From a virus: DNA of 35,689 nucleotides. The translations under genes were made by a program, and so were the position numbers. Within the stretch, counting starts at the first letter, position 1. Each line of letters starts with the position of its first letter. This document shows positions 4,540 through 33,693 of the stretch, one piece after another. The notes under the pieces were generated by a model. The model worked only from the letters and a program-made list of their open reading frames with translations. It was not told the DNA's origin and did no database searches. The stretch covers positions 1 through 35,689 of the IMG/VR virus record IMGVR_UViG_3300045974_001003. One strand, given 5' to 3'.

Positions 4540-6734
4540 TCGAGTTGTCCTGGTTTAAATCGTTGACCAATACAGAAGCACAGCGGCGTTCGCTTGAATG
4601 GGACGCTGCTGTAAAGCTGCTGACGACTCCGATGGAAGTGGCAACAAAGGAAGCAGCACCGCTCTATTCACCGGCATTGTATAACGGCACTCCCCGGCGT
4701 TCGAATGTGAACGTCGTGGGAATGTCTGCCCTGGTACTTGATTTTGATAATGATCATTCTGGCGTCCCGACCGCTCCTGATGATGCTCTCAGCAACCTTC
4801 CCGATGATGTGTCCTATATCTGGCACAGTACTTTTTCCGCTACTGAAGAAAAACCGAAGTGGCGCCTGATCATCCCTTTCTCTCGCATTGTAGATCCTCG
4901 GGAATGGATGTGGATCGTCAAGGGTTCATTACAGATGATGGGTAACGATGACGGCCTCGATAAGTCGAGTGGGGATCTCTCCCGGGCGTTCTATGTAATG
5001 AGCTGTCCTCCTGGGGGTGTCCGTGCTTCCGGATTCCGTGCCGGTACCCTGCTTGATCCGCAATACCTACTCGACCAGGCTGATGCTCCCCCTCTTGAAC
5101 TGTCAAATCCATTACATGTCGCCCAGGTTCCTTTAGGACGTCTTGATCGGGCAGTAATCAAAGTCACGGGTCGCAATAACATCTTACGGGGCATTGTGAC
5201 GGCAATGCTTGGCCGGAGTGAGTCATGGGACAAGATCATTTCTGAAATCTTGAAAGTTGATGCAACTCATAATCCTCCTTTGTTCTCTGATCCATCCGAA
5301 CCTCAGTATGTCGGATTGCCTCCAGAGGTTGGTGCCATGTCTTTTGTCGCCTCCATCGTCAAGAGCATTGCCTTGGCCCGGGCGAAGCAGGGACTTCCTC
5401 CGGAGCTGCCGCGCAATACGGAAATTCAGGTAGAAGAAGCGGAAGAAGAGATCGAGGAAGACACTTTCCCTGGGACAATGCCTGAGTATCTTCTCAACCC
5501 GGGAGGTTTTCTCCAGGAGATGACTGACTGGATCAACGCCGGCGCTCATCGAAAGCAACCGATTTTAGCCCTGGGTGCAGCAATCTCCACAATGGGCACA
5601 ATCATGGGCCGTAAGGTTAAGACAGAAACAAATCTAAGAACAAATCTCTACATCGTGGGAGTTGGTGAAACTTCCTGCGGAAAGGAGCATGCCAGGCAGT
5701 GCATCAAGTCACTGTTTCATGCTTCCGAGTGTGAGGATTATCTCGGGCCGGAAAACCTTGCTTCGGACTCCGGTCTGTTGGTGGCAGTACATAATCAGCC
5801 GGCCATGCTGTTGATGATAGATGAAATAGGTTGGTTGCTCAAAGCGGTCACCAGCCAGTATGCCAAGCCGTATATGAAGAACATTGCCCAGGTACTTATG
5901 CAACTGCACTCGTCTGCAGGTGGTGTGATGAAGGGCAAGACCTATGCAGACAAGGAGCGGAAGCAGGAGAATATCCAGCAGCCGAACGTATGTCTCTACG
6001 GCACCAGCGTTCCAGGGAGATTTCACGCAGCTCTCACCCGGGATGAAGTGGAAGATGGTTTCGTTCCTCGTATGGTTGTTTTTGAATCGGAAGACCCTTC
6101 CCCTCCCCGGCGTCGGATCAAAACCATTGCTCCCCCTGAAAATCTGATCCAGTTGGTTCGTTACTGGTACGATCTGCCGGTTGGTAATCAATCTGCTTTC
6201 GGAAAACTGGCAGGGTATGCTGCCGTTCCGGATCCCCGTGAAGTTGTCTGTACATCGGGAGCTGATGAAATATTCACTATGTTTGAGGATTATGTGCGTG
6301 ATCAGGCCAATGAGTGCAGGCCGAGGGGAGTCGCGGGGTTATGGGGCAAAACGGAAGCTACTGCGCTTCAGCTGGCACTTATCCATGCACTGTCTCTAAA
6401 TCCCGAAGGCAGGTTTATTGAAGCTGTTTCGGCAGAGTGGGCAATTGGGCTGATGACATATCTGACAAAGCGAATGGTTCGGATGGCAGAGAAGAACCTG
6501 AACGCGAACCAGTATGAGGCAGATGTAAAGAAAGTGCTGCAGATCATCTATGAGCAAGGCAAGGAAGGAATGGGCAGGCGCTCACTTCGGAGACGCTGCC
6601 AGTGGATGCCTTCACGGGTCTTTGATGAGGTGCTGTCAGTTTTAGAAGAGTCAGGGCAGATTAAAAAGACGGTAAAAAAATCAACCGGGACAGGTGGCCG
6701 TGACGGTGTCCATTATCGAGCTTATCAAAAATAA
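4536..6734 (+). CDS. Primase-helicase: AEP-like N terminus and DUF3987-like ATPase
   Basis: The 732-residue protein starts at a GTG coupled to the HNH stop. Residues about 60-165 look like an archaeo-eukaryotic primase core: ALVLDFDND with acidic D69 and D71, then WRLIIPF near 109-115, and DLSRAFYVMSCPPG. Residues about 330-560 resemble the DUF3987-type ATPase: a Walker A variant GETSCGKE (377-384, Glu where Ser/Thr is usual) and Walker B LLMIDEIG with D429 and E430. The C terminus (about 660-732) looks like a winged helix. It probably primes and unwinds phage DNA and is the replicative hub, adjacent to the repeat-rich non-coding region. Confidence 0.8.
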   Translation: MIELSWFKSLTNTEAQRRSLEWDAAVKLLTTPMEVATKEAAPLYSPALYNGTPRRSNVNVVGMSALVLDFDNDHSGVPTAPDDALSNLPDDVSYIWHSTFSATEEKPKWRLIIPFSRIVDPREWMWIVKGSLQMMGNDDGLDKSSGDLSRAFYVMSCPPGGVRASGFRAGTLLDPQYLLDQADAPPLELSNPLHVAQVPLGRLDRAVIKVTGRNNILRGIVTAMLGRSESWDKIISEILKVDATHNPPLFSDPSEPQYVGLPPEVGAMSFVASIVKSIALARAKQGLPPELPRNTEIQVEEAEEEIEEDTFPGTMPEYLLNPGGFLQEMTDWINAGAHRKQPILALGAAISTMGTIMGRKVKTETNLRTNLYIVGVGETSCGKEHARQCIKSLFHASECEDYLGPENLASDSGLLVAVHNQPAMLLMIDEIGWLLKAVTSQYAKPYMKNIAQVLMQLHSSAGGVMKGKTYADKERKQENIQQPNVCLYGTSVPGRFHAALTRDEVEDGFVPRMVVFESEDPSPPRRRIKTIAPPENLIQLVRYWYDLPVGNQSAFGKLAGYAAVPDPREVVCTSGADEIFTMFEDYVRDQANECRPRGVAGLWGKTEATALQLALIHALSLNPEGRFIEAVSAEWAIGLMTYLTKRMVRMAEKNLNANQYEADVKKVLQIIYEQGKEGMGRRSLRRRCQWMPSRVFDEVLSVLEESGQIKKTVKKSTGTGGRDGVHYRAYQK

Positions 6735-6771
6735 TTCCGTCAAATTTCGTCAAGGTTTTTTTTGACGGAAT
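6734..6771 (+). repeat. 11-bp inverted repeat ATTCCGTCAAA / TTTGACGGAAT
   Basis: The arms lie at 6734-6744 and 6761-6771 with a 16-base spacer containing another copy of the 9-mer and a T8 tract. It starts just at the primase-helicase stop. It could form a hairpin, but no T-run follows the second arm, so it is more likely a protein-binding palindrome than a terminator. Confidence 0.6.
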
Positions 6772-7017
6772 ATAGCCAGTATTGAAGCGGGTTTATATAC
6801 CTTTTGTCAAATAATTAGGGGGGGTACTTTTAACCGGTAAATACTCAAAAACAAAAGTACCCCCCTTGACTTTGACAGAAGGGGGGTAAATGCAGACTGG
6901 TAGCGGCTATATTTAGTCAAAAAGTTTATTGACGGAATGTGACGAAATAAAGAGAGCTAAAACCAAAAAGCAGGGTTAAAACGTACACTTACATCATTTT
7001 ATTGTCAAGGATAAATT
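6735..7017 (+). promoter_or_regulatory. Non-coding control or origin region with repeated TTNNGTCAA sites
   Basis: This 283-bp gap is the longest non-coding stretch in the window. It contains seven exact matches to TTNNGTCAA: forward at 6735, 6745, 6802 and 6912, reverse-complement at 6762, 6872 and 6929. There are also near matches at 6939 (reverse) and 7000. A 13-bp perfect stem-loop lies among them. The layout (iteron-like repeats next to a primase-helicase gene, at the early/late boundary) suits a replication origin or an operator cluster. The reverse copies contain TTGAC and could instead be promoter -35 elements, but I found no well-spaced -10 box. AAGGA at 7007-7011 is the ribosome site of the next gene. 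Confidence 0.6.
6819..6865 (+). repeat. 13-bp perfect inverted repeat (G6-TACTTTT stem-loop)
   Basis: GGGGGGTACTTTT (6819-6831) and AAAAGTACCCCCC (6853-6865) are exact reverse complements separated by 21 bases. A stem with six G-C pairs at its base would be very stable. The sequence after it (TTGACTTTG) has no T-run, so simple rho-independent termination is not supported. A further G6 run with a TA step recurs at 6881. Confidence 0.75.
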
Positions 7018-7296
7018 ATGAACTTCAATTTCCCTCGTACAAAGTTCGCCGGCATCAACGGAATATGCACTCAGGTGGCTCATATTTGCAGTGAAGCAGA
7101 AGAAGCAAAAGAGTCTTCATCCACTCCTGATATTCAGCACACAGCCGAGGAAGTGATGGACTGTCTACACTCCTGCGAAACGGCGCTGCGGATCCTCCAG
7201 GATAAGTACGGAATAAATATCAGTGCGCTGCGCCGTGATGTTGAGCGTAAGAATATGGAGAGAGGGTATTACTCATCCGGGACGGAGGTGATATGA
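7018..7296 (+). CDS. MazG-like nucleotide pyrophosphohydrolase-type protein
   Basis: The 92-residue, all-helical protein shows the all-alpha NTP pyrophosphatase signature: E26-x2-E29 (SEAEEAKE) and E45-x2-D48 (EEVMDCL), followed by a long helix (HSCETALRILQDKYG) and a C-terminal VERKNMERGYY, similar to the K-N-x-x-R-G-Y ending of MazG proteins. MazG-type enzymes bind Mg through the acidic motif and hydrolyse nucleotides to monophosphates; phage versions may adjust dNTP or alarmone pools. Substrate cannot be read from the sequence. AAGGA six bases before the ATG supports the start. The stop overlaps the next ATG (ATGA). Confidence 0.6.
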   Translation: MNFNFPRTKFAGINGICTQVAHICSEAEEAKESSSTPDIQHTAEEVMDCLHSCETALRILQDKYGINISALRRDVERKNMERGYYSSGTEVI

Positions 7297-7493
7297 GCGG
7301 GGCCACAATCAGAAAATCACGTATGGTCAGCGTTGTTGCCGAAATTATGGGTATCAGTAAATCATCAGTTTTACGCCTGATCCAATCTGGAGACCTGGAA
7401 GCATATCGGGTAAAGCGCTGGTATTACGTTTTTGTCGAGTCAATTGAAAAATATCAGCAAAACAAAAAAAATGCGTCAGTTGGTATTGATTGA
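7293..7493 (+). CDS. Helix-turn-helix DNA-binding protein (excisionase/MerR-like HTH)
   Basis: A 66-residue protein with an HTH_17-type winged helix: VVAEIMGISKSSVLRLIQSGDLEAYRVKRWYYV (about residues 14-46). This is the pattern of small excisionase-family DNA binders, in which the helix-turn-helix is followed by a wing carrying K/R-W-Y. GGAGGTG at 7284-7290 is a strong ribosome site, and ATGA couples it to the MazG-like gene. With no integrase in view, a regulator or DNA-architecture role is as likely as excision; the repeat cluster 300-550 bases upstream is an obvious candidate target, by inference only. Confidence 0.75.
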   Translation: MSGATIRKSRMVSVVAEIMGISKSSVLRLIQSGDLEAYRVKRWYYVFVESIEKYQQNKKNASVGID

Positions 7494-7512
7494 TTGATTA
7501 AATAGTTGAAGA

Positions 7513-7538
7513 TAGCGGCATGATTATTCTAGCCGCTA
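7513..7538 (+). repeat. 7-bp perfect inverted repeat TAGCGGC / GCCGCTA
   Basis: The arms lie at 7513-7519 and 7532-7538 with a 12-base AT-rich spacer, in the non-coding gap between the HTH gene and the small terminase gene. No T-run follows. It could be an operator or part of a packaging recognition site; its function is unknown. Confidence 0.5.
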
Positions 7539-23779: not shown

Positions 23780-23959
23780 ATGGAATACATCAAGATTAGC
23801 GACAGGTCATCAGAATTTTTATGTTCCGACAATCTAGACGAAGATGGGGAGATAGAAATTCTTTTCGAGCCCGAATACAGGGGCGCACTTTACCTAAATA
23901 AATTTGAGGCTAGATTATTGGCAATGCAGTTGAATAAGTTGTTTTTTCTGGGGGAATGA
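23780..23959 (+). CDS. Hypothetical 59-residue protein
   Basis: A small frame between the gp13-like and GNAT genes starts at the ATG at 23780, two bases after the gp13-like stop, with a G6 run seven bases upstream, and ends at 23957-23959 in an ATGA overlap. The product is acidic in the first half (NLDEDGEIEILFEPEY) and helical in the second (KFEARLLAMQLNKLFFLGE). I do not recognise a family. Tight packing and coupling on both sides support it being translated. Confidence 0.6.
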   Translation: MEYIKISDRSSEFLCSDNLDEDGEIEILFEPEYRGALYLNKFEARLLAMQLNKLFFLGE

Positions 23960-24408
23960 TGATTACAAAAGCCGATCATTCTCACATTGAAATGCTTGCC
24001 CGTGCCGCAGTATCTGTTCTTTCTGATCTGCCGAATTATGCCGGGGTTGAGTATGACATCAACCATACCAGGAAAATGCTTGAAACGTATTTATCGCTTG
24101 ATGGGTTGGCCTGTTTCTTCGAGGAGTGTGACGGTGAGGTGATCGGTCTTTTTATGGGGATGGTCGCGCCGCAGTGGTTTTCTCCAACACTGGAAATGTC
24201 AGAGCTGATGTTCTGGGTCAGATCGGATTTTCGCACTACTCCACTGGCTCGTCTTCTGATCAAGACAATGGAGCATTGGGCAATAGAAAAGGGCGCAAAA
24301 AAACTGATCATCGCGGCGGCATCCGGTTATGAAACTGCCAGGGTGGAAAAGTTTTATAACCGCATGGGATACAAGACCTGTGCCCTGATGACTAGCAAGG
24401 AGGTATGA
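23956..24408 (+). CDS. GNAT-family acetyltransferase-like protein
   Basis: The 150-residue protein has the GNAT order: N-terminal ITKADHSHIEMLARAAVSVLSDLPNY, a central strand ACFFEECDGEVIGLFMG, strand ELMFWVRSDFRTTPLARLLIKTMEHWAIEKGAKKLII (acetyl-CoA-binding helix region, with R-T-T-x-L-A-R in place of a canonical Q/R-x-x-G-x-G/A loop) and a C-terminal FYNRMGYKTCALM. GNATs near internal virion genes are known in podoviruses. The substrate is unknown, and the altered acetyl-CoA loop means that activity is uncertain. Confidence 0.75.
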   Translation: MMITKADHSHIEMLARAAVSVLSDLPNYAGVEYDINHTRKMLETYLSLDGLACFFEECDGEVIGLFMGMVAPQWFSPTLEMSELMFWVRSDFRTTPLARLLIKTMEHWAIEKGAKKLIIAAASGYETARVEKFYNRMGYKTCALMTSKEV

Positions 24409-24409
24409 C

Positions 24410-24913
24410 GTGGCTTCAATATCAGCAACAACAGCAGCAATAGCGGCGATAGTAGCAACAGCGGCAAGTACCAGCGTTGCCGTATATGGTCAAGTGGCCG
24501 CGGCAGAAAACGCCAAAGAGACGGCAGACTACAATGCCGAGATGCAGAGACGGGCCGCACTCGATGCTAGTCAGAGAGGATCGGCGGACGCAGCGGATAA
24601 ACGTCAGGAGACGCGCCGAATGATCGCCCGTCAGCATGCCATCATGGGTGGCAGCGGTTTCGACCCCAACTCAGGAACAAATCTGTCTCTGATGACCGAG
24701 ACCGCCGGACAGGGGGAGTTGGACGCGCTAAAGATTAGAAATAATGCCGCCCGGACGGCTGCTGGACTCAATGCGCAGGCCGATCTAACTACGGCCCAGG
24801 GGGATGCCGCTCTGTCTGCAGGGCAGATGAATGCTGGCGGAACTATTCTCAGTGGGTTAGCAAATATGGGACTGGCTGCATACAAGATGAACAATCCTCC
24901 ACCGAAGCAATAG
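24410..24913 (+). CDS. Internal virion protein (T7 gp14-like)
   Basis: This 167-residue protein starts at a GTG two bases after the GNAT stop, with AAGGAGGT upstream. The N terminus is a long Ala/Ile/Val helix (residues about 5-27), a possible membrane-spanning segment, followed by Ala/Gln-rich helices and MGGSGFDPNSGTNLSLMTETAGQGELDALKIRNNA, the characteristic pattern of gp14-like core proteins. In T7, gp14 inserts into the outer membrane during ejection. Order and neighbours (gp13-like upstream, gp15- and gp16-like downstream) match this role. Confidence 0.75.
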   Translation: MASISATTAAIAAIVATAASTSVAVYGQVAAAENAKETADYNAEMQRRAALDASQRGSADAADKRQETRRMIARQHAIMGGSGFDPNSGTNLSLMTETAGQGELDALKIRNNAARTAAGLNAQADLTTAQGDAALSAGQMNAGGTILSGLANMGLAAYKMNNPPPKQ

Positions 24914-24922
24914 AGGTCATAA

Positions 24923-26707
24923 ATGCTAATTCCAAGATACGAAGATTCTCAGGTAAAGAATGTAGCTGTCTCTATTCCGCAGGCTCAGGCGCTCGGTCCC
25001 GATGCATTCGGGGCAGGCATTGCAAAGGGACTTGCACAGGTTGCGGACGCTGGCCAGAGCATAGTGGTTCAGGAGACTCATAAGGCAAACCTGAAGACTG
25101 CCCAGGACGCCACCATATTCTTAAATCAGCTTGGCAGCCAAGCAGATCTGGAAATCAAGTCCACTGTCGGAGATGCTGCTTTTGGGACACCTGACAATCC
25201 GGAAGGCGTCACCGTACCTACTCTAAAAAAGTTTGATGACAAGTTCTCTGAGTGGGCAAACAAGAACGTCACCAATGACACACAGAGAGATTACGTAAAT
25301 AAACTGCATGCAGAGAAGCGGACAACGCTGGAACATTCTGGACTGACTCATCAGTACCAGGAGAAAACCAAGTCTGAGGACAAGTCATACCAGTCGGTCA
25401 AGTCATCGCTGCTCGATCAGGTCGCAGTCTATGCAGTCGATCCGGCCGGACAGGATAAATACGAAAAGGCCGTAATCGATGGCATTGCCCATATCGATGC
25501 ATTTGCTACCACAAGGGGCTGGACTCAGGAACAGATTGATGCAGAGGTGGCAAACTGGGAAGGCTCCACAGCCAAAGTCAAGGCAGTGCAGATGATGACG
25601 CTTAATCCTTCCGGCGCCAAGGCCTTCATTGAAGAAAATAAAGACGTGCTCGGTTCCGATTATACACAGCTCAAGCATAATGTGGATCTGGTAGAAGCTG
25701 ACACAATCGGCGTCAATGCTGCTGAGGCGATCAGTTCCCGTCTTCAGAAGGATGGCTATACTGCATTGAGGGGCGAACTTTACAAGCAGTTTGGCGGCGG
25801 CACTCAGGCGTTCAACTCCAAAGCGTTTAAGGTAGCCGAGGCGCAGCTGGCGTCAAACAACCAGGCATTGAAGATCGAGCAGAAACAGAACTCGGACAAA
25901 CTGGAAGTCCCGGTTCTCCAGTTCATGGCGTCAGTCAACGGTACCGGCCGCGCTGTCCAGCCGAAAGAGTTGATGGCACTTCCTGCATACAAAGACATGA
26001 TCACTTCCACCGATGCCGCAGTGGTGGAGAAAGCAACGCAGATCATGGCAAATGTACGCAACCAGTCGCATCAAGAAGCGGTATTCGAGCGGTCTATGGC
26101 AAACTCCGGCAGGGCTGAAGCTAGGGCCGCGCAAGCTCAGCAACAAAGAGATGACTGGTATTCCTTATTAAACAATCCGGACAAGATTGCTGAAATGTCT
26201 GAAGCTGACATGCTCCGTACGGCGTCCACTCTCGGCACTTATGGTGATGATCTGGTCAAAGCCCACAAGAAGCTGGTATCACCGGAAGCACTAGGGCAGG
26301 CCAAGATCGATGCATCTATCCTGAAGGGTGTCTACTCCACGCTGAAAATACCTACCAAGAAGCAGGGCGCTATTCAGGACGCTTTGACAAATTATGTCAT
26401 TGCTGAACAGGGCCGGGAAAAGAAGATAATCACACCCGGACGAATGAGGGAACTGATCGGTGCGGCAATACAGGATGTGACCGTTAATGAAAGGGTATCT
26501 CCTCTTGGAATGGATTCCCTGAGTTATGACTCAACTACAAAGAAAAAACTGTACGAAGTCAAAAATCAGGACGCCATCGTTATCCCCTCCAAAGAGTCCG
26601 CAGGTATTTCCGCTCTACTCAAGGGATATGGAATTGAGGACTCTCCCAAAAACAGAATAAAATTCTACAAGGCAACTCTCGCTGAAAAAGCCAAGGGTGG
26701 TAAATAA
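24923..26707 (+). CDS. Internal virion protein (T7 gp15-like)
   Basis: The 594-residue protein opens MLIPRYEDSQVKNVAVSIPQAQALGPDAFGAGIAKGLAQVADAGQ, a conserved start of internal virion proteins in podoviruses, and is almost wholly helical and Ala/Gln/Lys-rich. No catalytic motif is visible. It probably forms part of the internal core or ejectosome between the gp14-like and gp16-like proteins. GAGGTC lies upstream of the ATG. Its stop overlaps the next start as TAATG, consistent with linked production. Confidence 0.75.
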   Translation: MLIPRYEDSQVKNVAVSIPQAQALGPDAFGAGIAKGLAQVADAGQSIVVQETHKANLKTAQDATIFLNQLGSQADLEIKSTVGDAAFGTPDNPEGVTVPTLKKFDDKFSEWANKNVTNDTQRDYVNKLHAEKRTTLEHSGLTHQYQEKTKSEDKSYQSVKSSLLDQVAVYAVDPAGQDKYEKAVIDGIAHIDAFATTRGWTQEQIDAEVANWEGSTAKVKAVQMMTLNPSGAKAFIEENKDVLGSDYTQLKHNVDLVEADTIGVNAAEAISSRLQKDGYTALRGELYKQFGGGTQAFNSKAFKVAEAQLASNNQALKIEQKQNSDKLEVPVLQFMASVNGTGRAVQPKELMALPAYKDMITSTDAAVVEKATQIMANVRNQSHQEAVFERSMANSGRAEARAAQAQQQRDDWYSLLNNPDKIAEMSEADMLRTASTLGTYGDDLVKAHKKLVSPEALGQAKIDASILKGVYSTLKIPTKKQGAIQDALTNYVIAEQGREKKIITPGRMRELIGAAIQDVTVNERVSPLGMDSLSYDSTTKKKLYEVKNQDAIVIPSKESAGISALLKGYGIEDSPKNRIKFYKATLAEKAKGGK

Positions 26708-29700
26708 TGGCTCTCGAAGACGTTCTGAAACAGATGAAGGATGATCAGGATCGGCAGCTTTCATTGTCTAATTCCGCCATGCAAGCCGCTAACGTCAATC
26801 CTGATCAGCAGGCCGGAGCAGTTAAGCTCGCTCAACAGTCAGGCCTCCCGGTGCATCAGTTTCCGGCGATGTCAGACGATGCCAAGCTGCAGGTATTGAC
26901 TGATAATTTCCATACTCTTTCCCAGACCTCCCCGAAATCAGCTGCATGGTTGACGGATCCGGAGAATGCCAAGCTGGCCCACGATGATGTAAACAGCGCA
27001 TCAAAGATCGAGGGTCTGTTTGGATACCTCAACCTTGCCAAGCAGGCGGCGCAAAATGCAATTCCGATGGCTGGCAAGGGCATTAACGAATTAATGTATA
27101 ACGCGACGCTTTTTACTGGTGGCCAGGCTCTATCGCGTGCCATGGGGACGGGGGATCCCGGCGCGGTATGGCTTAAAAACATGGATTGGTATAACCGGCG
27201 TATCAAATCCAATGAAAAAATTGTTCCTGGTTCTTACGGTCAGGAGCTTACTAAGATGACGTTTGATACTGTTGCCGCTAATTTGATTACGCTCCCGCTT
27301 GGAGCTATTGGAAAAGTGCCAATGCTACTGGGCTTTGCCGCTACTGCTCCCGGTCAGCTGGAAGATTACCTAAAAGCTGGTTATTCCCCTGCTCAGTCCG
27401 CGTACTTCTCTCTCTCCAACAAGTCCATGGAGGGATTGACGGAATTGATCGGCGTCCAGCACCTCTACAAAGCAGGGAAACCAATCGGCAAGAAGATTGC
27501 CGGGTTCATGCTTGGCGATCTATTTGGGGAGGAGATCAACAACGCCTACAGCGCATTGATGGACAAGGGAACGCTCAAGCCGGACATGACGCTGAAGGAC
27601 TTCGGGCGGTCAGTGATTGATACGGCTATTGTCACGGCGGCGGCTGGCGGTGTGCAGGGTGCTATGCTGCATCCAGTAGCAAAACTCTCTCAGGAGTATC
27701 AACGAAATCAGCAGGCAGCACTCAACAAGGATTTCATGCTGGCCCTGGGTGAAGCGGCGGGAGAATCGAAACTCCGTCAACGTCTCCCCGAGAAGTTCCA
27801 GGAGCTCGTCGGCAGATTGAAAGAAGGTGGCGATATTGAAAACGTCTATATCCCCGGTGACCAATGGAAACAGTACTGGCAGGAGAAAGGCGCTGATCCG
27901 GTCAAGATGGCTGATGATACTATTGATGGTGGCGGCACTCAATACACAGAGGCGCTTGCTGCCGGCGGAGATATCGTTATCCCGATTGAGGTTTACGCCA
28001 ACAAGCTGGCCGCGACTGAGCACCATGTGGCACTCTTAGAACATTCCCGTCTCCATCCTGGGGATGCCACAGCTTTTGAGGCGGCACAGTTTGCAGCAGA
28101 CCAGGAGCAACTTCTTTCAGATCTGAAAGTTGAAGCTGACGGCGCCACAAAAGAGCGTCCGTCATATTTCAAAGTATACGATGATATTTACGGACAGTTA
28201 CAGGGAATCGGTTACGACCGGCAGACAGCGGAGCAGTATGCGACCATTGCGGCAGTCAGGGCAAAGCAGAGGGCAGCAGTTCTGGGTAAAGATGCTTTTG
28301 ATCTTTACAACGAATCTCCGCTTAAAATAGTGCGCCCTCTTCCCGAGGGGGTGCAGCGGCAGTCTGTTGATATGGGAATTGATCCTTTGCTTGATCGATT
28401 AAGAGCGGGAGACATTCCGACAGATGAAAGTATCTTTGGACAGTCTTTGCTTCAGTTCGTGCGAGATCGTGGTGTGAAGGATGACCGCGGTGAACTGAAA
28501 AGTATGGATGCCGATACTGCGCGTAAGCCGGGGCAAAAGAATATTATCCGCAAAGACGGTCAAGGGCTGGATCGTGTCCAAGAAGGAGCGGTAGAAGCCG
28601 GATATCTCCCTGAGGGCTCAACTATTGCCGATCTGCTGGACAAGATCGATCAGGAGCTGCGCGGAACTCCGGTCTACAGTAACCAGGTTACCAATCCGCA
28701 GGGACATGAAACGAAACTGGCACTGGAAGAATTGAAGCAGCATCTTGATCAGGTAGGAATAGATTACAACCAGCTGTCTAACGAACAGATCCGGCGCGAG
28801 TTGTATCAGATGCAAGGAGGGGAGTTATTCCAAACGGCTATTGATTCAATTGTCATAAAAAATCCGGTGGATAATTTTGACCTGAAGCGTTATCTAATTG
28901 ATGGCATTCGCAATGGAACTTTATCTCCTGACGACATTGCTAACCATATTGAGAATATACTGACTGATAGAGTAACTGGTTTTGGTACTGATGTAGGACG
29001 TATCCACGCACTCAATAATACCTTTGCAAAGTTTCTGCAAGACCAGACTCAAGACTTTGGTTATGCCGATATTGATCTTGCCAATCTCGGAGGGTTAAAC
29101 GCTTTCCGTGGTTCCAATGAAGGGGCAAACAAAGATTTCACGGCCATTGCCAAAATAATCGAGGCAGAAGTAAAGGCCGCATATCCAGATGCTATGCTGT
29201 TTCGGCATGGTGGTGATGAGATGACGGTCATAGCTCCTGGTGCAATTGCTGATGATCTGGACTCTGTTCTGGAAAAGGCAAAATCTAAAGTTGATGCTTA
29301 TGCCGTTGAAGCTGGTATTGATAAAATACCTCATTCAAAAGACACTCCGGAACATCCTCACGCACCAGGTGTAAGCATTTATTTTGGTACAACAGATTAT
29401 TTTGACAAATCTATAATTGAGGATATAATTAAATCAGCTGATAGAATCACTAACGATAAAAAAATATTAAAGGCGGCTGAGTATGTCACAGGAAAACAGA
29501 GAGATTCGGTTAGGGATCAGTCAACTGTCATTTCAGGAGAAGTTGTCTCTGGCCCAGACGGAACTGGCAGCGGAAAAAACAAGACGGGCCAAGAACTTGG
29601 CAATGAGGGGGTCAAATCAGCAGAACAACGCATAAATGATTTTGTTGATCAAGTAATATATAATTCCTCAGAAGAACAGCTTACCCTCTTTCAGTCCGTT

Positions 29701-32700
29701 ACATCCTCAACACCCACTAAGCGCGGGTTCTTCCGCACCTCTCCTGACATGACTACCCGAGAGATCGGCATCCTCAAAGATGCTGACCTTTCAACCTTCA
29801 TACATGAAATCTCCCACTCCTGGCTGGAAGAACTGAAGCTCGATGCTTCTCGCCCTGACGCTCCGGAACAACTCAAAAACGATTGGGCAACTATCTCCAA
29901 GTGGCTCGGCACAACTAACGGCGAAATCTCCCGTGAGATGCACGAACAGTTTGCCCGTAGTGGTGAGTCTTATCTGATGGAGGGCAAAGCACCTTCCGCT
30001 GAACTGCAACCGATCTTCCAGCGTTTCAAATCCTGGTTGACTTCCATCTACAAAACCCTGTCCGGTCTCAACGTCAAAATGAATGATGACGTGCGCGGTG
30101 TCTTTGACCGTCTCCTTGCTAGTGAATCAGAGATCAAGCAGGCACGGCAGGCTCAGAACATGGTGGAGCTGTTTGTCACAAAAGAAGACGCCGGCATGAC
30201 TGATGCCGAGTTTGCCGCATATCGTAAGCAGGCGGCACAGGCTCACGCTGAAGAGGTTGAAAAGCTGGAACGTAAGCTGATGAAGGAAAAAGCGCGGGAA
30301 CATGCGCAGTGGTGGAAGGATGCTCGGGAAGCCATGCTCAGTGAGGTCGAAGTGGAAGCACAGGCCGCTCCGGTCTATCGCGCCATTCGTTTACTATCCA
30401 CCGGCAAGATGTTCGACGGCACCGAAGGGCCGGTGATGAAACTGGACCGCTCCGCCCTGGTGAAGATGTACGGAGAACCATTCCTGAAACGTCTCCCGCG
30501 TGGATTCGGATATATCTACACCAATGAGGGCGGTATGCATCCTGACCAGGTGGCCGCGCTGTTCGATTATGAGTCCGGCGATGCCATGATCAAGGAGATG
30601 ATCGAAGCGCCTCCGCTCAAGAAGTACATCGAGGGTGAAACTGATATCAGAATGCGCGAGCGGTACGGCGACATGCTGCTGGACGGTACGGTGGCTGATG
30701 AAGCACTGGCGGCAATCCATGGTGACAGTCGCGCTGTTGTTCTGGCAGCAGAACTCAGGGCGATCAAGCGGCAACAGAAGGCTGTAAAACCGGCGGTGGA
30801 TGCCGCCACGAGGGAAGCTGACCAGCAAGCCAAAGCAAACAGTGAATATGAGCGCCGATGGTTTGAGGCTGAAAAGAATCTTGCTGTCGCTATCGAACGC
30901 GGGGCCAAAGAAGAAGAGATCAGAAAACTGACTGAAGAAGTCAAAACAGCCAAGGAAGCAGACCGGCAGGGCAAGCGAGACATGAACGCCTCGATCCCTT
31001 CCCGCGAAACCTTCCAGATGGCAGCGGCTCAGATTATCAGTGACAAGAAGATCGGTGATATCGCTCCACGTCTTTACCTGGAAGCGGAACGCAGGGCAGG
31101 CAAGAAGGCTTTTGACGCAGTGGCCAAGAAGGACTGGCAGGCAGCCGGAGAAGCGAAACAGCAGCAACTTCTGAATCATTACCTCTATCGGGAAGCAACG
31201 GCTGCACAAGAACAGATCGACGGCATCATGAAGGGATATGACAAGCTCAAGAAGTCTGATGAGAAACTTGCCAAGTCTCGGGACATTAACCTGGTCAATG
31301 CAGCTCGTGCGATTCTCTCTCGATACCAGATCGACAAGAACGGCATGGACGCTGCCGAATACCTGGCGCAGATCCAGCAGTACAACCCGGAGATATATGC
31401 AGATCTGAGTGCCGCGGTGGATGCAGCCACGCAAGCACCGAAACCATACAAACAGTTAACCATGGATGAGTTCCTGGCTGTCAACGATGCTGTAATGAAT
31501 CTGTGGGAGTTGTCCAGGCGTACCAAGCAGATCGAAATCGACGGAAAAATCATGAACCGAGACGAAGTGATTGATGAACTGAACGCTCGTATGGAAGAAC
31601 TCGGTCTCCCTGCCAATCAGGTCGGCAAGGCCACGGCCATAACCAAGTGGGAAAAGTTCAACGCCGCGCTGGTGGGGATGAGGGCTGCAACAACCAGAGT
31701 CGAGGCATGGGTGGACGCCATGGATGGCGGGAAGTCTACCGGAGTATTCCGGCGTTACATCTGGAATCCGGTCATTGATGGAGTGACAAAATACCGGACT
31801 GCCAAGAAGGCATTTATCAACAAGTATCTTGAGCTCCTGAAACCGATCGAGGCAGGTATCAGTAACGACAAGATTGCTGCTCCTGAACTCGACTACACCT
31901 TCAACGGGAAACAGGAACTGCTCGGGGCTCTACTCCATATCGGCAACGAAAGCAACATGGAAAAGTTACTCGTGGGGCGGCAGTGGGGATATATCGCAGA
32001 AGACGGCGGACTCTATACCGGGACATGGGACAGCTTCATCAATCGCATGATCGCCGAGGGGAAGCTGACAAGGGCTGATTATGATTTTATTCAGGGAGTA
32101 TGGGACTTACTGGAAGAAGCGAAACCGCTCTCCCAGAAAGCACACCACGAAATGTATGGTTACTATTTCAGCGAGATAACCGCTAATCCGGTCAACACCC
32201 CATTCGGCACTTATCGCGGCGGATACGCTCCGGCAATCGTTGATAGTGATATCAATCAAGACCAGGCGAGCAGACAGGAAAAAGAGTCTCTTGAGTCCAC
32301 TAACAACAGCTTCATGTTTCCTTCCACTGGGCGCGGTTTCACTAAGTCGCGTGTCACCTATAATAAACCACTTGTGCTGGATCTGCGGCTTGTACCGTCG
32401 TCACTCGATAAGGTATTGCGTTTCTCTTTCATTGAACCCCGCGTCAAGGACGTTGGACGAGTAATCGTTAACCCGGCGCTCCGTGAAGTACTAAACCAGT
32501 TCAATCCCTCTGTCGGCGGTGACATGCTGGTACCATGGTTGCAGCGTACAGCTCGACAGTCCGTATCAACTCCGTCAACCGGTACGGCTGGACGTGCACT
32601 CGATACAGTATTCCAGACAATTAGGCGTAACACCGGTATTCAGATGATGGTTGCCAACGTCTCCAATACCATTCAGCAGTTCACAGGTCTGGCACTGTCG

Positions 32701-33693
32701 GCAACGAAAGTGAAACCTACTCACTTGAAGTCAGCACTCTGGAAGTACGTCAACCATCCGATGAATATGGCGGAAGAAGTCGCGTCGATGTCTGAATTCA
32801 TGGCGGCAAACATTGGGCACTCTGCCTATGATATGCAGCAGCAGGCCGAAGATATCTTGCTCAATCCGAATGCCTACGAGAAGGTCAAGGATTTCAGCGT
32901 TAAGAACGGGTACATCCTCCAGCAGATTACCCAACACACGGTGGATGTTATTACCTGGTCCGGTGCTTATGACCAGGCCGTGGCCGAAGGTGCCAACGAG
33001 AGAGACGCTGTACGGCGTGCTGACAGTGCCGTGCGCATGACTCAAGGCACATTCAATGCGGAAGATGTCAGTCGTCTTGAGACCGGTTCCCCTTTTGTTC
33101 GAGCTTTTACGCAGTTCTATACTTATTTCAATATGCAGGCCAATCTGCTCGGGAGTGCTGCGGTCGGAGCGATCAGAGAGAACGGAGTCAAGGGCGCAGC
33201 GCCTACCCTGTTGAAACTGTATTCGGCCTTTGCAGTAGCCGCAATTCTTTCTGAGGCAATCACTTTCGCTGCTAGGGGCGGCAAGGATCCGGACGATGAC
33301 GAGCTCGATGTTGCGTTGCAGCTGTTGGTCATGTCCCAGGTGAGAACCGTAACGGCCATGATTCCAATTGTAGGTGCCGGCGCAAACTACGTGATGAATC
33401 TGCTGAATGACAAGAAGTATGACGATCGGATCAGTACGGCTCCGTTTCTATCGCAAATGGAAGCGTCTTTACGGGCTCCTGTCTCTCTATACAAATATGC
33501 TGCTGACGATGGCAGCATGAAGATGGCGGTCAAGGACACGCTCGTCGCGATAGGTATGATTACCGGATTACCTGCTGGGGCTCTTGGTCGTCCTCTCGGG
33601 TATCTGGCCGGAATGGAAGATGGCAAATATGAGCCGAGTGGACCGGTTGATTTAACTCGTGGGTTAATAACCGGGATGAGATCACAAAACTGA
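26707..33693 (+). CDS. Giant polyvalent internal virion protein (gp16 position) with GGDEF-like and zincin domains
   Basis: A 2328-residue protein that fills about one fifth of the window. The N-terminal third is helical with phage LPD-like segments (KNIIRKDGQGLDRVQEGAVEAGYLPEG near 618-645). Residues about 710-993 hold a GGDEF-like domain: D788-I-D790, then RHGGDEM at 833-839. After that, a zincin metallopeptidase motif HEISH (1033-1037) with a downstream MHEQFARSGESYLMEGKAPS block near H1079. Long charged helices follow, then a C-terminal LPD-like region (NTGIQMMVANVSNTIQQFTG; RMTQGTFNAEDVSRL; SPFVRAFTQFYTYFNMQ) with hydrophobic stretches. It occupies the T7 gp16 place and is probably ejected into the host with the DNA. 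The AT-rich GGDEF segment appears inserted. Confidence 0.82.
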   Translation: MALEDVLKQMKDDQDRQLSLSNSAMQAANVNPDQQAGAVKLAQQSGLPVHQFPAMSDDAKLQVLTDNFHTLSQTSPKSAAWLTDPENAKLAHDDVNSASKIEGLFGYLNLAKQAAQNAIPMAGKGINELMYNATLFTGGQALSRAMGTGDPGAVWLKNMDWYNRRIKSNEKIVPGSYGQELTKMTFDTVAANLITLPLGAIGKVPMLLGFAATAPGQLEDYLKAGYSPAQSAYFSLSNKSMEGLTELIGVQHLYKAGKPIGKKIAGFMLGDLFGEEINNAYSALMDKGTLKPDMTLKDFGRSVIDTAIVTAAAGGVQGAMLHPVAKLSQEYQRNQQAALNKDFMLALGEAAGESKLRQRLPEKFQELVGRLKEGGDIENVYIPGDQWKQYWQEKGADPVKMADDTIDGGGTQYTEALAAGGDIVIPIEVYANKLAATEHHVALLEHSRLHPGDATAFEAAQFAADQEQLLSDLKVEADGATKERPSYFKVYDDIYGQLQGIGYDRQTAEQYATIAAVRAKQRAAVLGKDAFDLYNESPLKIVRPLPEGVQRQSVDMGIDPLLDRLRAGDIPTDESIFGQSLLQFVRDRGVKDDRGELKSMDADTARKPGQKNIIRKDGQGLDRVQEGAVEAGYLPEGSTIADLLDKIDQELRGTPVYSNQVTNPQGHETKLALEELKQHLDQVGIDYNQLSNEQIRRELYQMQGGELFQTAIDSIVIKNPVDNFDLKRYLIDGIRNGTLSPDDIANHIENILTDRVTGFGTDVGRIHALNNTFAKFLQDQTQDFGYADIDLANLGGLNAFRGSNEGANKDFTAIAKIIEAEVKAAYPDAMLFRHGGDEMTVIAPGAIADDLDSVLEKAKSKVDAYAVEAGIDKIPHSKDTPEHPHAPGVSIYFGTTDYFDKSIIEDIIKSADRITNDKKILKAAEYVTGKQRDSVRDQSTVISGEVVSGPDGTGSGKNKTGQELGNEGVKSAEQRINDFVDQVIYNSSEEQLTLFQSVTSSTPTKRGFFRTSPDMTTREIGILKDADLSTFIHEISHSWLEELKLDASRPDAPEQLKNDWATISKWLGTTNGEISREMHEQFARSGESYLMEGKAPSAELQPIFQRFKSWLTSIYKTLSGLNVKMNDDVRGVFDRLLASESEIKQARQAQNMVELFVTKEDAGMTDAEFAAYRKQAAQAHAEEVEKLERKLMKEKAREHAQWWKDAREAMLSEVEVEAQAAPVYRAIRLLSTGKMFDGTEGPVMKLDRSALVKMYGEPFLKRLPRGFGYIYTNEGGMHPDQVAALFDYESGDAMIKEMIEAPPLKKYIEGETDIRMRERYGDMLLDGTVADEALAAIHGDSRAVVLAAELRAIKRQQKAVKPAVDAATREADQQAKANSEYERRWFEAEKNLAVAIERGAKEEEIRKLTEEVKTAKEADRQGKRDMNASIPSRETFQMAAAQIISDKKIGDIAPRLYLEAERRAGKKAFDAVAKKDWQAAGEAKQQQLLNHYLYREATAAQEQIDGIMKGYDKLKKSDEKLAKSRDINLVNAARAILSRYQIDKNGMDAAEYLAQIQQYNPEIYADLSAAVDAATQAPKPYKQLTMDEFLAVNDAVMNLWELSRRTKQIEIDGKIMNRDEVIDELNARMEELGLPANQVGKATAITKWEKFNAALVGMRAATTRVEAWVDAMDGGKSTGVFRRYIWNPVIDGVTKYRTAKKAFINKYLELLKPIEAGISNDKIAAPELDYTFNGKQELLGALLHIGNESNMEKLLVGRQWGYIAEDGGLYTGTWDSFINRMIAEGKLTRADYDFIQGVWDLLEEAKPLSQKAHHEMYGYYFSEITANPVNTPFGTYRGGYAPAIVDSDINQDQASRQEKESLESTNNSFMFPSTGRGFTKSRVTYNKPLVLDLRLVPSSLDKVLRFSFIEPRVKDVGRVIVNPALREVLNQFNPSVGGDMLVPWLQRTARQSVSTPSTGTAGRALDTVFQTIRRNTGIQMMVANVSNTIQQFTGLALSATKVKPTHLKSALWKYVNHPMNMAEEVASMSEFMAANIGHSAYDMQQQAEDILLNPNAYEKVKDFSVKNGYILQQITQHTVDVITWSGAYDQAVAEGANERDAVRRADSAVRMTQGTFNAEDVSRLETGSPFVRAFTQFYTYFNMQANLLGSAAVGAIRENGVKGAAPTLLKLYSAFAVAAILSEAITFAARGGKDPDDDELDVALQLLVMSQVRTVTAMIPIVGAGANYVMNLLNDKKYDDRISTAPFLSQMEASLRAPVSLYKYAADDGSMKMAVKDTLVAIGMITGLPAGALGRPLGYLAGMEDGKYEPSGPVDLTRGLITGMRSQN
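28834..29688 (+). other. GGDEF-like domain segment inside the giant virion gene
   Basis: The segment encodes residues about 710-994. It includes GYADIDLANLGGLNAF (D788 and D790 in the place of the metal-binding strand) and RHGGDEMTVIAPG (GGDEM at 835-839), then a C-terminal strand GVSIYFGTTDY. Where diguanylate cyclases usually have G-H-x-x-G-D, this sequence has GSNEGAN, so the guanine-contacting Asp appears to be Asn808. It is visibly AT-rich: 15 of 60 bases G+C at 29401-29460, against 30 of 60 at 31021-31080. Flanking ELFQ (706-709) and LFQS (994-997) look alike, as if the domain was inserted between two halves of one site. Confidence 0.65.

What the first reader, a model, noticed from the sequence alone, without database searches (positions are those of the whole stretch)
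28834..29688. GGDEF-like cyclase domain inserted in a giant ejected virion protein
Residues 710-994 of the 2328-residue gp16-position protein show a GGDEF signature (RHGGDEM at 833-839) with an upstream D-I-D strand (788-790). The segment is strikingly AT-rich compared with its flanks and lies between two similar short sequences (ELFQ at 706-709, LFQS at 994-997), as if dropped into one site. If this protein is ejected into the host as in T7, the phage would deliver a cyclic-dinucleotide enzyme or mimic at the moment of infection, before any phage gene is expressed. It could alter host c-di-GMP or cGAMP signalling or interfere with nucleotide-based defence. The guanine-contacting Asp seems to be Asn808 and the G-H-x-x-G-D motif is lost, so the product may be non-standard or the domain may only bind nucleotides.
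Basis: partly seen in the sequence, partly recalled or inferred. Interest (0 to 1): 0.85.

Follow-up and report, generated by a model that had tools for sequence, protein, structure and literature searches.

The report
Swappable GGDEF module in ejected protein
A phage carries a real GGDEF-type cyclase domain, the enzyme fold that normally makes the bacterial signal c-di-GMP, as one of several interchangeable cargo modules in a giant protein probably ejected into the host at infection; GGDEF in such proteins was already known, but this subfamily and the clean swapping between near relatives appear new.

Summary
Residues 754-917 of the 2328-aa ORF match Pfam GGDEF above its curated cut-off, and the predicted structure matches diguanylate cyclases (Z about 16). 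Residues 710-1004 are a foreign module. DNA homology to the nearest relative (87-94% identical at protein level on either side) stops at codon 709 and resumes at codon 1005, where that relative carries a different module. Two further close relatives carry an RNase-type module or nothing there. The module is the most AT-rich stretch of its length in the contig (41% against 52% GC). Across about 80 relatives the stretch before a conserved HExxH (zincin-like) domain also holds ART, PBECR, GNAT, RadC and Zeta-toxin domains. This is a phage polyvalent protein, and GGDEF in such proteins was reported in 2017. What looks new is a distinct subfamily (D-[LI]-x-N-L-G-G-[LI]-N, plus an invariant H-x-K loop; 7 members), with the metal ligands and GGDE kept, the phosphate-contact Lys replaced by Gly, and the base-contact Asp replaced by Asn here. 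Best reading: an interchangeable early-effector cyclase module exposed to host cytoplasm after ejection. Ejection, catalysis and product are inferred. It is neither a canonical DGC nor Hypr.

The parts
26707..33693 (+). 2328-aa polyvalent protein in gp16 position (follows internal virion protein genes, precedes tail fibre)
   Evidence: phrog_9880 E 0 (unknown function)
26773..27027 (+). LPD22 domain (residues 23-107), a large-polyvalent-protein marker
   Evidence: PF18834 E 8.9e-17
27283..27687 (+). N-side hydrophobic stretches (residues 193-213 and 307-327)
   Evidence: Kyte-Doolittle; heuristic only
28822..28833 (+). left border motif ELFQ (706-709); DNA homology to L002 ends here
28834..29718 (+). 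exchanged module (residues 710-1004), GC about 41%
28966..29460 (+). GGDEF palm domain core (residues 754-918)
29065..29100 (+). YADIDLANLGGLN strand-helix (786-798): metal Asp D790, N-L-G-G 793-796 (PleD K332 -> G795), N798 (PleD N335)
29128..29130 (+). Asn808 at the base-contact position (PleD D344; Ser in Hypr)
29203..29223 (+). RHGGDEM signature hairpin (833-839)
29332..29340 (+). invariant H876-x-K878 loop motif of the subfamily
29686..29694 (+). LFQ (994-996), right border motif that precedes the HExxH domain in the family
29719..30174 (+). conserved zincin-like domain, HEISH at 1033-1037 (29803-29817), followed by the conserved HEQFARxxExY stretch
   Evidence: CLCA_X relation of Bbp10 in PMC3650047; fold match weak
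33208..33585 (+). C-side hydrophobic stretches (2168-2188, 2202-2222, 2273-2293)
   Evidence: heuristic only
24410..24913 (+). internal virion protein, upstream neighbour
   Evidence: phrog_418 E 4.6e-34
24923..26707 (+). gp15-position ORF
   Evidence: phrog_19141 E 7.1e-9

Best explanation
Residues 710-1004 are a horizontally acquired, interchangeable effector module with a GGDEF-fold nucleotidyl-cyclase domain, carried in the large polyvalent ejection protein of a short-tailed phage. SHOWN by computation: GGDEF fold; module borders; replacement of this module by a different module, by PBECR3, or by nothing in close relatives; membership of a distinct GGDEF subfamily found in phage, prophage-like and bacterial proteins. 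INFERRED: the protein is packaged and ejected like T7 gp16 or N4 vRNAP. The part between the two hydrophobic regions, which holds the GGDEF and the HExxH domain, reaches the cytoplasm and is possibly clipped free by that domain. There the module dimerises and condenses GTP (or a related NTP) into c-di-GMP or a close analogue before phage genes are expressed, shifting host signalling or nucleotide-based defence in the phage's favour.
For: Pfam above cut-off; AF2 core pLDDT above 90 with Foldseek/VIA matches only to DGCs at the top, Z up to 16.1; subfamily profile against PDB sequences E 1.7e-6. Active-site residues D790, N798, R833, G835-E838 are invariant across 7 members at 24-43% identity and K919 matches the phosphate-contact Lys, which argues for function under selection. 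Window, L109, L105, L106, L112, L113 and L114 form one supported clade (96/95). Swap and empty-site evidence and composition break. Diverse enzyme modules at the same place in 61 dereplicated relatives. Independent recurrence: L102 carries a canonical GGDEF at the same place. Recurrent pairing with ART, PBECR3 and RadC in other polyvalent proteins. Gene position among virion genes. Hydrophobic regions on both sides of the central part in the window, with the C-side strong in 80% of 50 relatives and the middle part without such a peak in 98%, resembling the T7 gp16 topology in PMC8954989. N4 vRNAP is an ejected giant enzyme with an HExxH domain downstream (PMC12633501).
Against: Base-contact Asp is Asn and the PleD K332-equivalent Lys is Gly; the signature ends in M, not F. 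No experiment shows catalysis. Virion presence and ejection are not shown for any member by anything I found. The N-side hydrophobic signal is weak (48% of relatives above the threshold). Dimerisation and an activating input domain were not seen.
Confidence: 0.58

Rival explanations
1. The module is a GGDEF-fold nucleotide or dinucleotide binder (sponge or sensor) without cyclase activity, carried for sequestration of a host signal or for regulation of the neighbouring domains.
For: K332 -> Gly in all 7 members, D344 -> Asn in 3 of 7, GGDEM in the window. Catalytically dead GGDEF domains that bind ligands are common (general knowledge).
Against: Metal Asp, third-position Asp and Glu of GGDE, N335 and K442 equivalents are kept although the rest has diverged to 24-43% identity. 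Known degenerate GGDEFs usually lose the GGDEF signature itself (general knowledge). No RxxD I-site for product binding is visible upstream of GGDE.
Confidence: 0.22
2. The module is an active enzyme with an altered product (cGAMP-like, c-di-AMP-like or another purine dinucleotide) because Asn808 changes base recognition.
For: The same position decides GTP against ATP use in Hypr enzymes (Ser348 against Asp, PMC6456294). Asn occurs in window, L105 and L106 although the window's sister L109 has Asp, so the change recurs or comes and goes.
Against: The other guanine-contact residue, N798 (N335 class), is kept; in OptS and GGDEF enzymes Asn goes with guanine and Ser with adenine (PMC12657218; that this is the same position as N798 is my reading). 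No Hypr Ser/Thr signature.
Confidence: 0.14
3. The insert is a selectively neutral or purely structural spacer that happens to derive from a GGDEF gene.
For: Relatives live without it (L003 empty site).
Against: What occupies the site in relatives is enriched in enzyme or effector domains (ART 19/61, GNAT, PBECR, RadC, Zeta toxin, GGDEF twice); active-site conservation.
Confidence: 0.06

Closest known systems
Polyvalent proteins of phages and conjugative elements (Iyer et al. 2017, PMC5512222), including GGDEF-bearing ones such as Acetonema longum WP_004096050.1
   Same: Giant multidomain protein coded among virion genes, with LPD22, a zincin-like domain and exchangeable enzyme domains; GGDEF domains were already noted, with the suggestion of interfering with host nucleotide signals.
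   Different: Here the GGDEF belongs to a distinct subfamily, sits in a podovirus gp16-position protein, and its swapping is seen between near-identical proteins. I could not compare with the Acetonema GGDEF sequence.
Canonical diguanylate cyclases (PleD, WspR, DgcB, DgcR)
   Same: Fold (Z 14-16), metal Asp, GGDE, N335-type Asn, K442-type Lys.
   Different: K332-type Lys -> Gly, D344-type Asp -> Asn in the window, GGDEM, no RxxD I-site seen, extra loop with H-x-K.
Hypr GGDEF (GacA, PMC6456294)
   Same: Also departs from Asp at the base-contact position.
   Different: Hypr has Ser/Thr there; the window has Asn.
T7 gp16 / N4 vRNAP ejected giant proteins
   Same: Gene position (gp16) and a large central part between hydrophobic regions; N4 vRNAP also has an HExxH domain next to an enzyme.
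   Different: No sequence match to a named T7 gp16 family was seen in PHROGs; cargo is a GGDEF instead of an RNAP; ejection not shown.
Bbp10-like proteins of Bordetella phage BPP-1 and relatives
   Same: Homologous host protein; Bbp10 carries PBECR1 at the matching place.
   Different: Cargo differs; no GGDEF was found in any of the 18 named phage records searched.

Membership tests
GGDEF domain family (PF00990) | Pfam profile score above curated cut-off | tested here: met
   28.6 bits (segment) and 23.9 bits (whole protein) against 23.8
GGDEF domain family (PF00990) | GGDEF palm fold | tested here: met
   AF2 core pLDDT above 90; Z 16.1 to DgcR, all top rows GGDEF
Canonical active diguanylate cyclase | Metal-binding Asp and acidic pair of GG[D/E]E | tested here: met
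   D790, D837, E838
Canonical active diguanylate cyclase | [G/A/S]G[D/E]E[F/Y] signature in full | tested here: not met
   GGDEM in the window; GGDEF in L106, L112, L114
Canonical active diguanylate cyclase | Base-contact Asp (PleD D344) | tested here: not met
   Asn808; Asp in L109, L112, L113, L114
Canonical active diguanylate cyclase | c-di-GMP synthesis | not testable with these tools
   needs enzyme assay
Hypr GGDEF (cGAMP synthase) | Ser/Thr at the base-contact position | tested here: not met
   Asn808
Phage polyvalent protein (Iyer et al. 2017) | Several unrelated domains including LPD and zincin-like domains in one polypeptide | tested here: met
   LPD22 + GGDEF + HExxH domain
Phage polyvalent protein (Iyer et al. 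2017) | Coded next to virion genes | tested here: met
   internal virion, tail tube and tail fibre genes on both sides
Phage polyvalent protein (Iyer et al. 2017) | Injected with phage DNA | not testable with these tools
   needs virion proteomics or a translocation reporter
Zincin-like metallopeptidase | HExxH plus a conserved downstream Glu | tested here: met
   H39 E40 H43 and E86/E93 invariant in 36 relatives
Zincin-like metallopeptidase | Zincin fold | tested here: inconclusive
   no Foldseek match at E <= 0.001; VIA Z 4-5 to several zincins (PPEP-1, -2, -3, lethal-factor fold) among unrelated helical rows
T7 gp16-like ejection protein | Gene order after gp14/gp15-like genes | tested here: met
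T7 gp16-like ejection protein | Hydrophobic regions on both sides of a cytoplasmic middle part | tested here: inconclusive
   hydropathy only; C-side strong, N-side weak in relatives

The most novel reading that the evidence does not exclude
The N-L-G-G-[LI]-N GGDEF subfamily with Asn at the base-contact position makes a cyclic dinucleotide other than c-di-GMP, delivered by the virion before phage gene expression to saturate or mislead host cyclic-nucleotide defence (CBASS, type III CRISPR or Panoptes-like guards), and phages exchange it for ADP-ribosyltransferase or RNase cargo at one site.
Probability: 0.1. Interest if true: 0.85.

Novelty: new variant of a known kind. Interest (0 to 1): 0.52.

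Why it matters
If right, short-tailed phages carry an interchangeable 'payload bay' in an ejected protein, and one payload is a signalling cyclase acting before any phage gene is expressed. The near-identical pair window/L002 is a natural allele swap (same carrier, different cargo), which makes the long-standing question of what ejected polyvalent proteins do in the host directly testable. The subfamily also gives a defined natural Asp/Asn contrast (window against its sister L109) for studying base choice in GGDEF enzymes.

Tried and rejected
Single-sequence scans for the module found no relative in named phages, even at E 10, except one chance-level hit, none in viral contigs and only E 0.2-0.8 hits in plasmids; relatives appeared only after pairing the module with L102. 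The idea that ELFQ/LFQS are insertion-site duplications was rejected: a hydrophobic-x-Q motif lies before the HExxH domain in 75 of 79 relatives (random windows 33%), and the strict aromatic form in 32 of 79 (random 5%). Whether it is a cleavage site is untested. The L002 module looks collinear with ART-PolyVal but without significant support (hhalign probability 8%, E 0.004; no Pfam match), so it is left unnamed. The zincin fold was not confirmed by Foldseek. Papers did not yield virion proteomics for this protein family. No residue-level structural superposition was possible, so active-site mapping rests on sequence profiles.

Full report
OBSERVATION. The window is an IMG/VR virus record of 35,689 bases. 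Gene order: terminase-like, head-tail adaptor (portal position), protease, major head protein, tail tube proteins, GNAT-like acetyltransferase, internal virion protein, gp15-position ORF, the 2328-aa ORF (26707..33693), tail fibre N-terminus, amidase. This is a short-tailed phage layout with the giant ORF in the gp16 position.

IS IT GGDEF? Pfam PF00990 matches residues 754-917 with 28.6 bits for the segment, over the curated 23.8. TIGR00254 matches below its cut-off. The AF2 model (11-row alignment) has pLDDT above 90 in the core; Foldseek and VIA list only GGDEF proteins at the top, Z 16.1 to DgcR at 2.8 A over 141 residues. The would-refute condition 'unrelated fold' was tested and not fulfilled.

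MODULE AND SWAP. The nearest relative (L002, IMGVR_UViG_3300010965_000017) is 87% identical over residues 1-712 and 94% over 985-2328, but has an unrelated segment of about 130 aa between. At DNA level homology ends at 28833 and resumes near 29719. L024, the next relative (zincin region 71% identical), carries a PBECR3 nuclease-like module, and L003 has no module, just one ELFQ followed by the KRGFF start of the next domain. The modules of window, L002 and L024 are all 10-14 points more AT-rich than the rest of their own ORFs, and the window's module is the most AT-rich 855-nt stretch in the contig. A scan of 61 dereplicated proteins (450 aa before the HExxH) found ART-PolyVal in 19, GNAT in 4, LPD3 in 3, PBECR types in 3, LPD37, DUF7178, MuF_C, RadC and GGDEF in 2 each, Zeta toxin in 1 (a count within 450 aa, not exact adjacency). 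Among the 97 relatives' records searched, only L102 held another GGDEF over the cut-off, also just before the HExxH domain; the same search does find the window's own GGDEF. GGDEF is thus a rare cargo at this place.

A DISTINCT SUBFAMILY. Starting from the window and L102, scans found L105, L106, L109 (virus contigs) and L112, L113, L114 (bacterial MAGs). Pairwise identity to the window is 29-43%; in a tree of 13 rows they form one supported clade apart from the other GGDEFs sampled (96/95; sampling is small and rooting is by midpoint). Invariant in all seven: Y786, D790, N793-L794-G795-G796, N798, A807, R833, G835-G836-D837-E838, H876, K878, A911. Profile alignment to DgcB, SadC and T. maritima DGC is gap-free through this stretch, which sets D790 as the metal Asp, G795 at the Lys position, N798 at the Asn position and N808 at the base-contact Asp position. 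L109, L112, L113 and L114 keep Asp there; window, L105 and L106 have Asn. The PleD residue roles are my own knowledge, apart from the Hypr and OptS papers. Members occur with ART (L105), PBECR3 + ART (L106) and RadC (L113) in other large proteins, while L114 is a 520-aa gene in a chromosomal setting.

HOW IT PROBABLY WORKS. Conservation of the catalytic residues at low overall identity argues that chemistry is under selection. The protein's position, LPD22 and HExxH domain mark it as a polyvalent protein; such proteins are predicted to be injected and processed. Hydropathy peaks lie at 193-327 and 2168-2293, leaving the middle soluble (relatives), which resembles the T7 gp16 model where the part between the membrane regions is in the cytoplasm. 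N4 vRNAP is a precedent of an ejected giant enzyme with an HExxH domain. The proposed chain - packaging, ejection, cytoplasmic exposure, optional clipping, dinucleotide synthesis, shift of host signalling or defence - is inferred from the packaging step on.

KNOWN AND NEW. GGDEF in polyvalent proteins, and the idea of signal interference, were published in 2017. Modularity of ejection proteins is also known. I found no report of this GGDEF subfamily or of allele-like cargo swaps at one site between near-identical carriers, though only an open-access library was searched. Hence 'new variant of a known kind', interest 0.52.

Noticed in passing
23956-24408: GNAT-like acetyltransferase (phrog_1249, E 1.8e-24) coded inside the virion gene cluster directly before the internal virion protein.
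   Followed up: no
window 29686-29718 and the matching place in 79 relatives: A hydrophobic-x-Q motif followed by RG precedes the HExxH domain in 75 of 79 relatives; it may be a processing site or just domain-start sequence.
   Followed up: partly
L004:11233-12855: A roughly 500-aa module without any Pfam match occupies the same site in IMGVR_UViG_3300013132_000372.
   Followed up: no
L114:6969-8528: A 520-aa gene with the same GGDEF subfamily at its C-terminus lies among chromosomal-looking genes of a gammaproteobacterial MAG, a possible cellular source of the module.
   Followed up: partly
L008 (PQ492659.1): Limnohabitans phage DC33 is filed under Inoviridae although its 39-kb record codes a relative of this giant protein.
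   Followed up: no
L011, L022 and relatives: Annotations 'crystallin beta/gamma motif' and 'lysin' of Bbp10-type proteins do not match the conserved HExxH and effector-module architecture.
   Followed up: partly
about 6661-7530: A second AT-rich stretch (about 41.5% GC) partly outside listed long ORFs.
   Followed up: no
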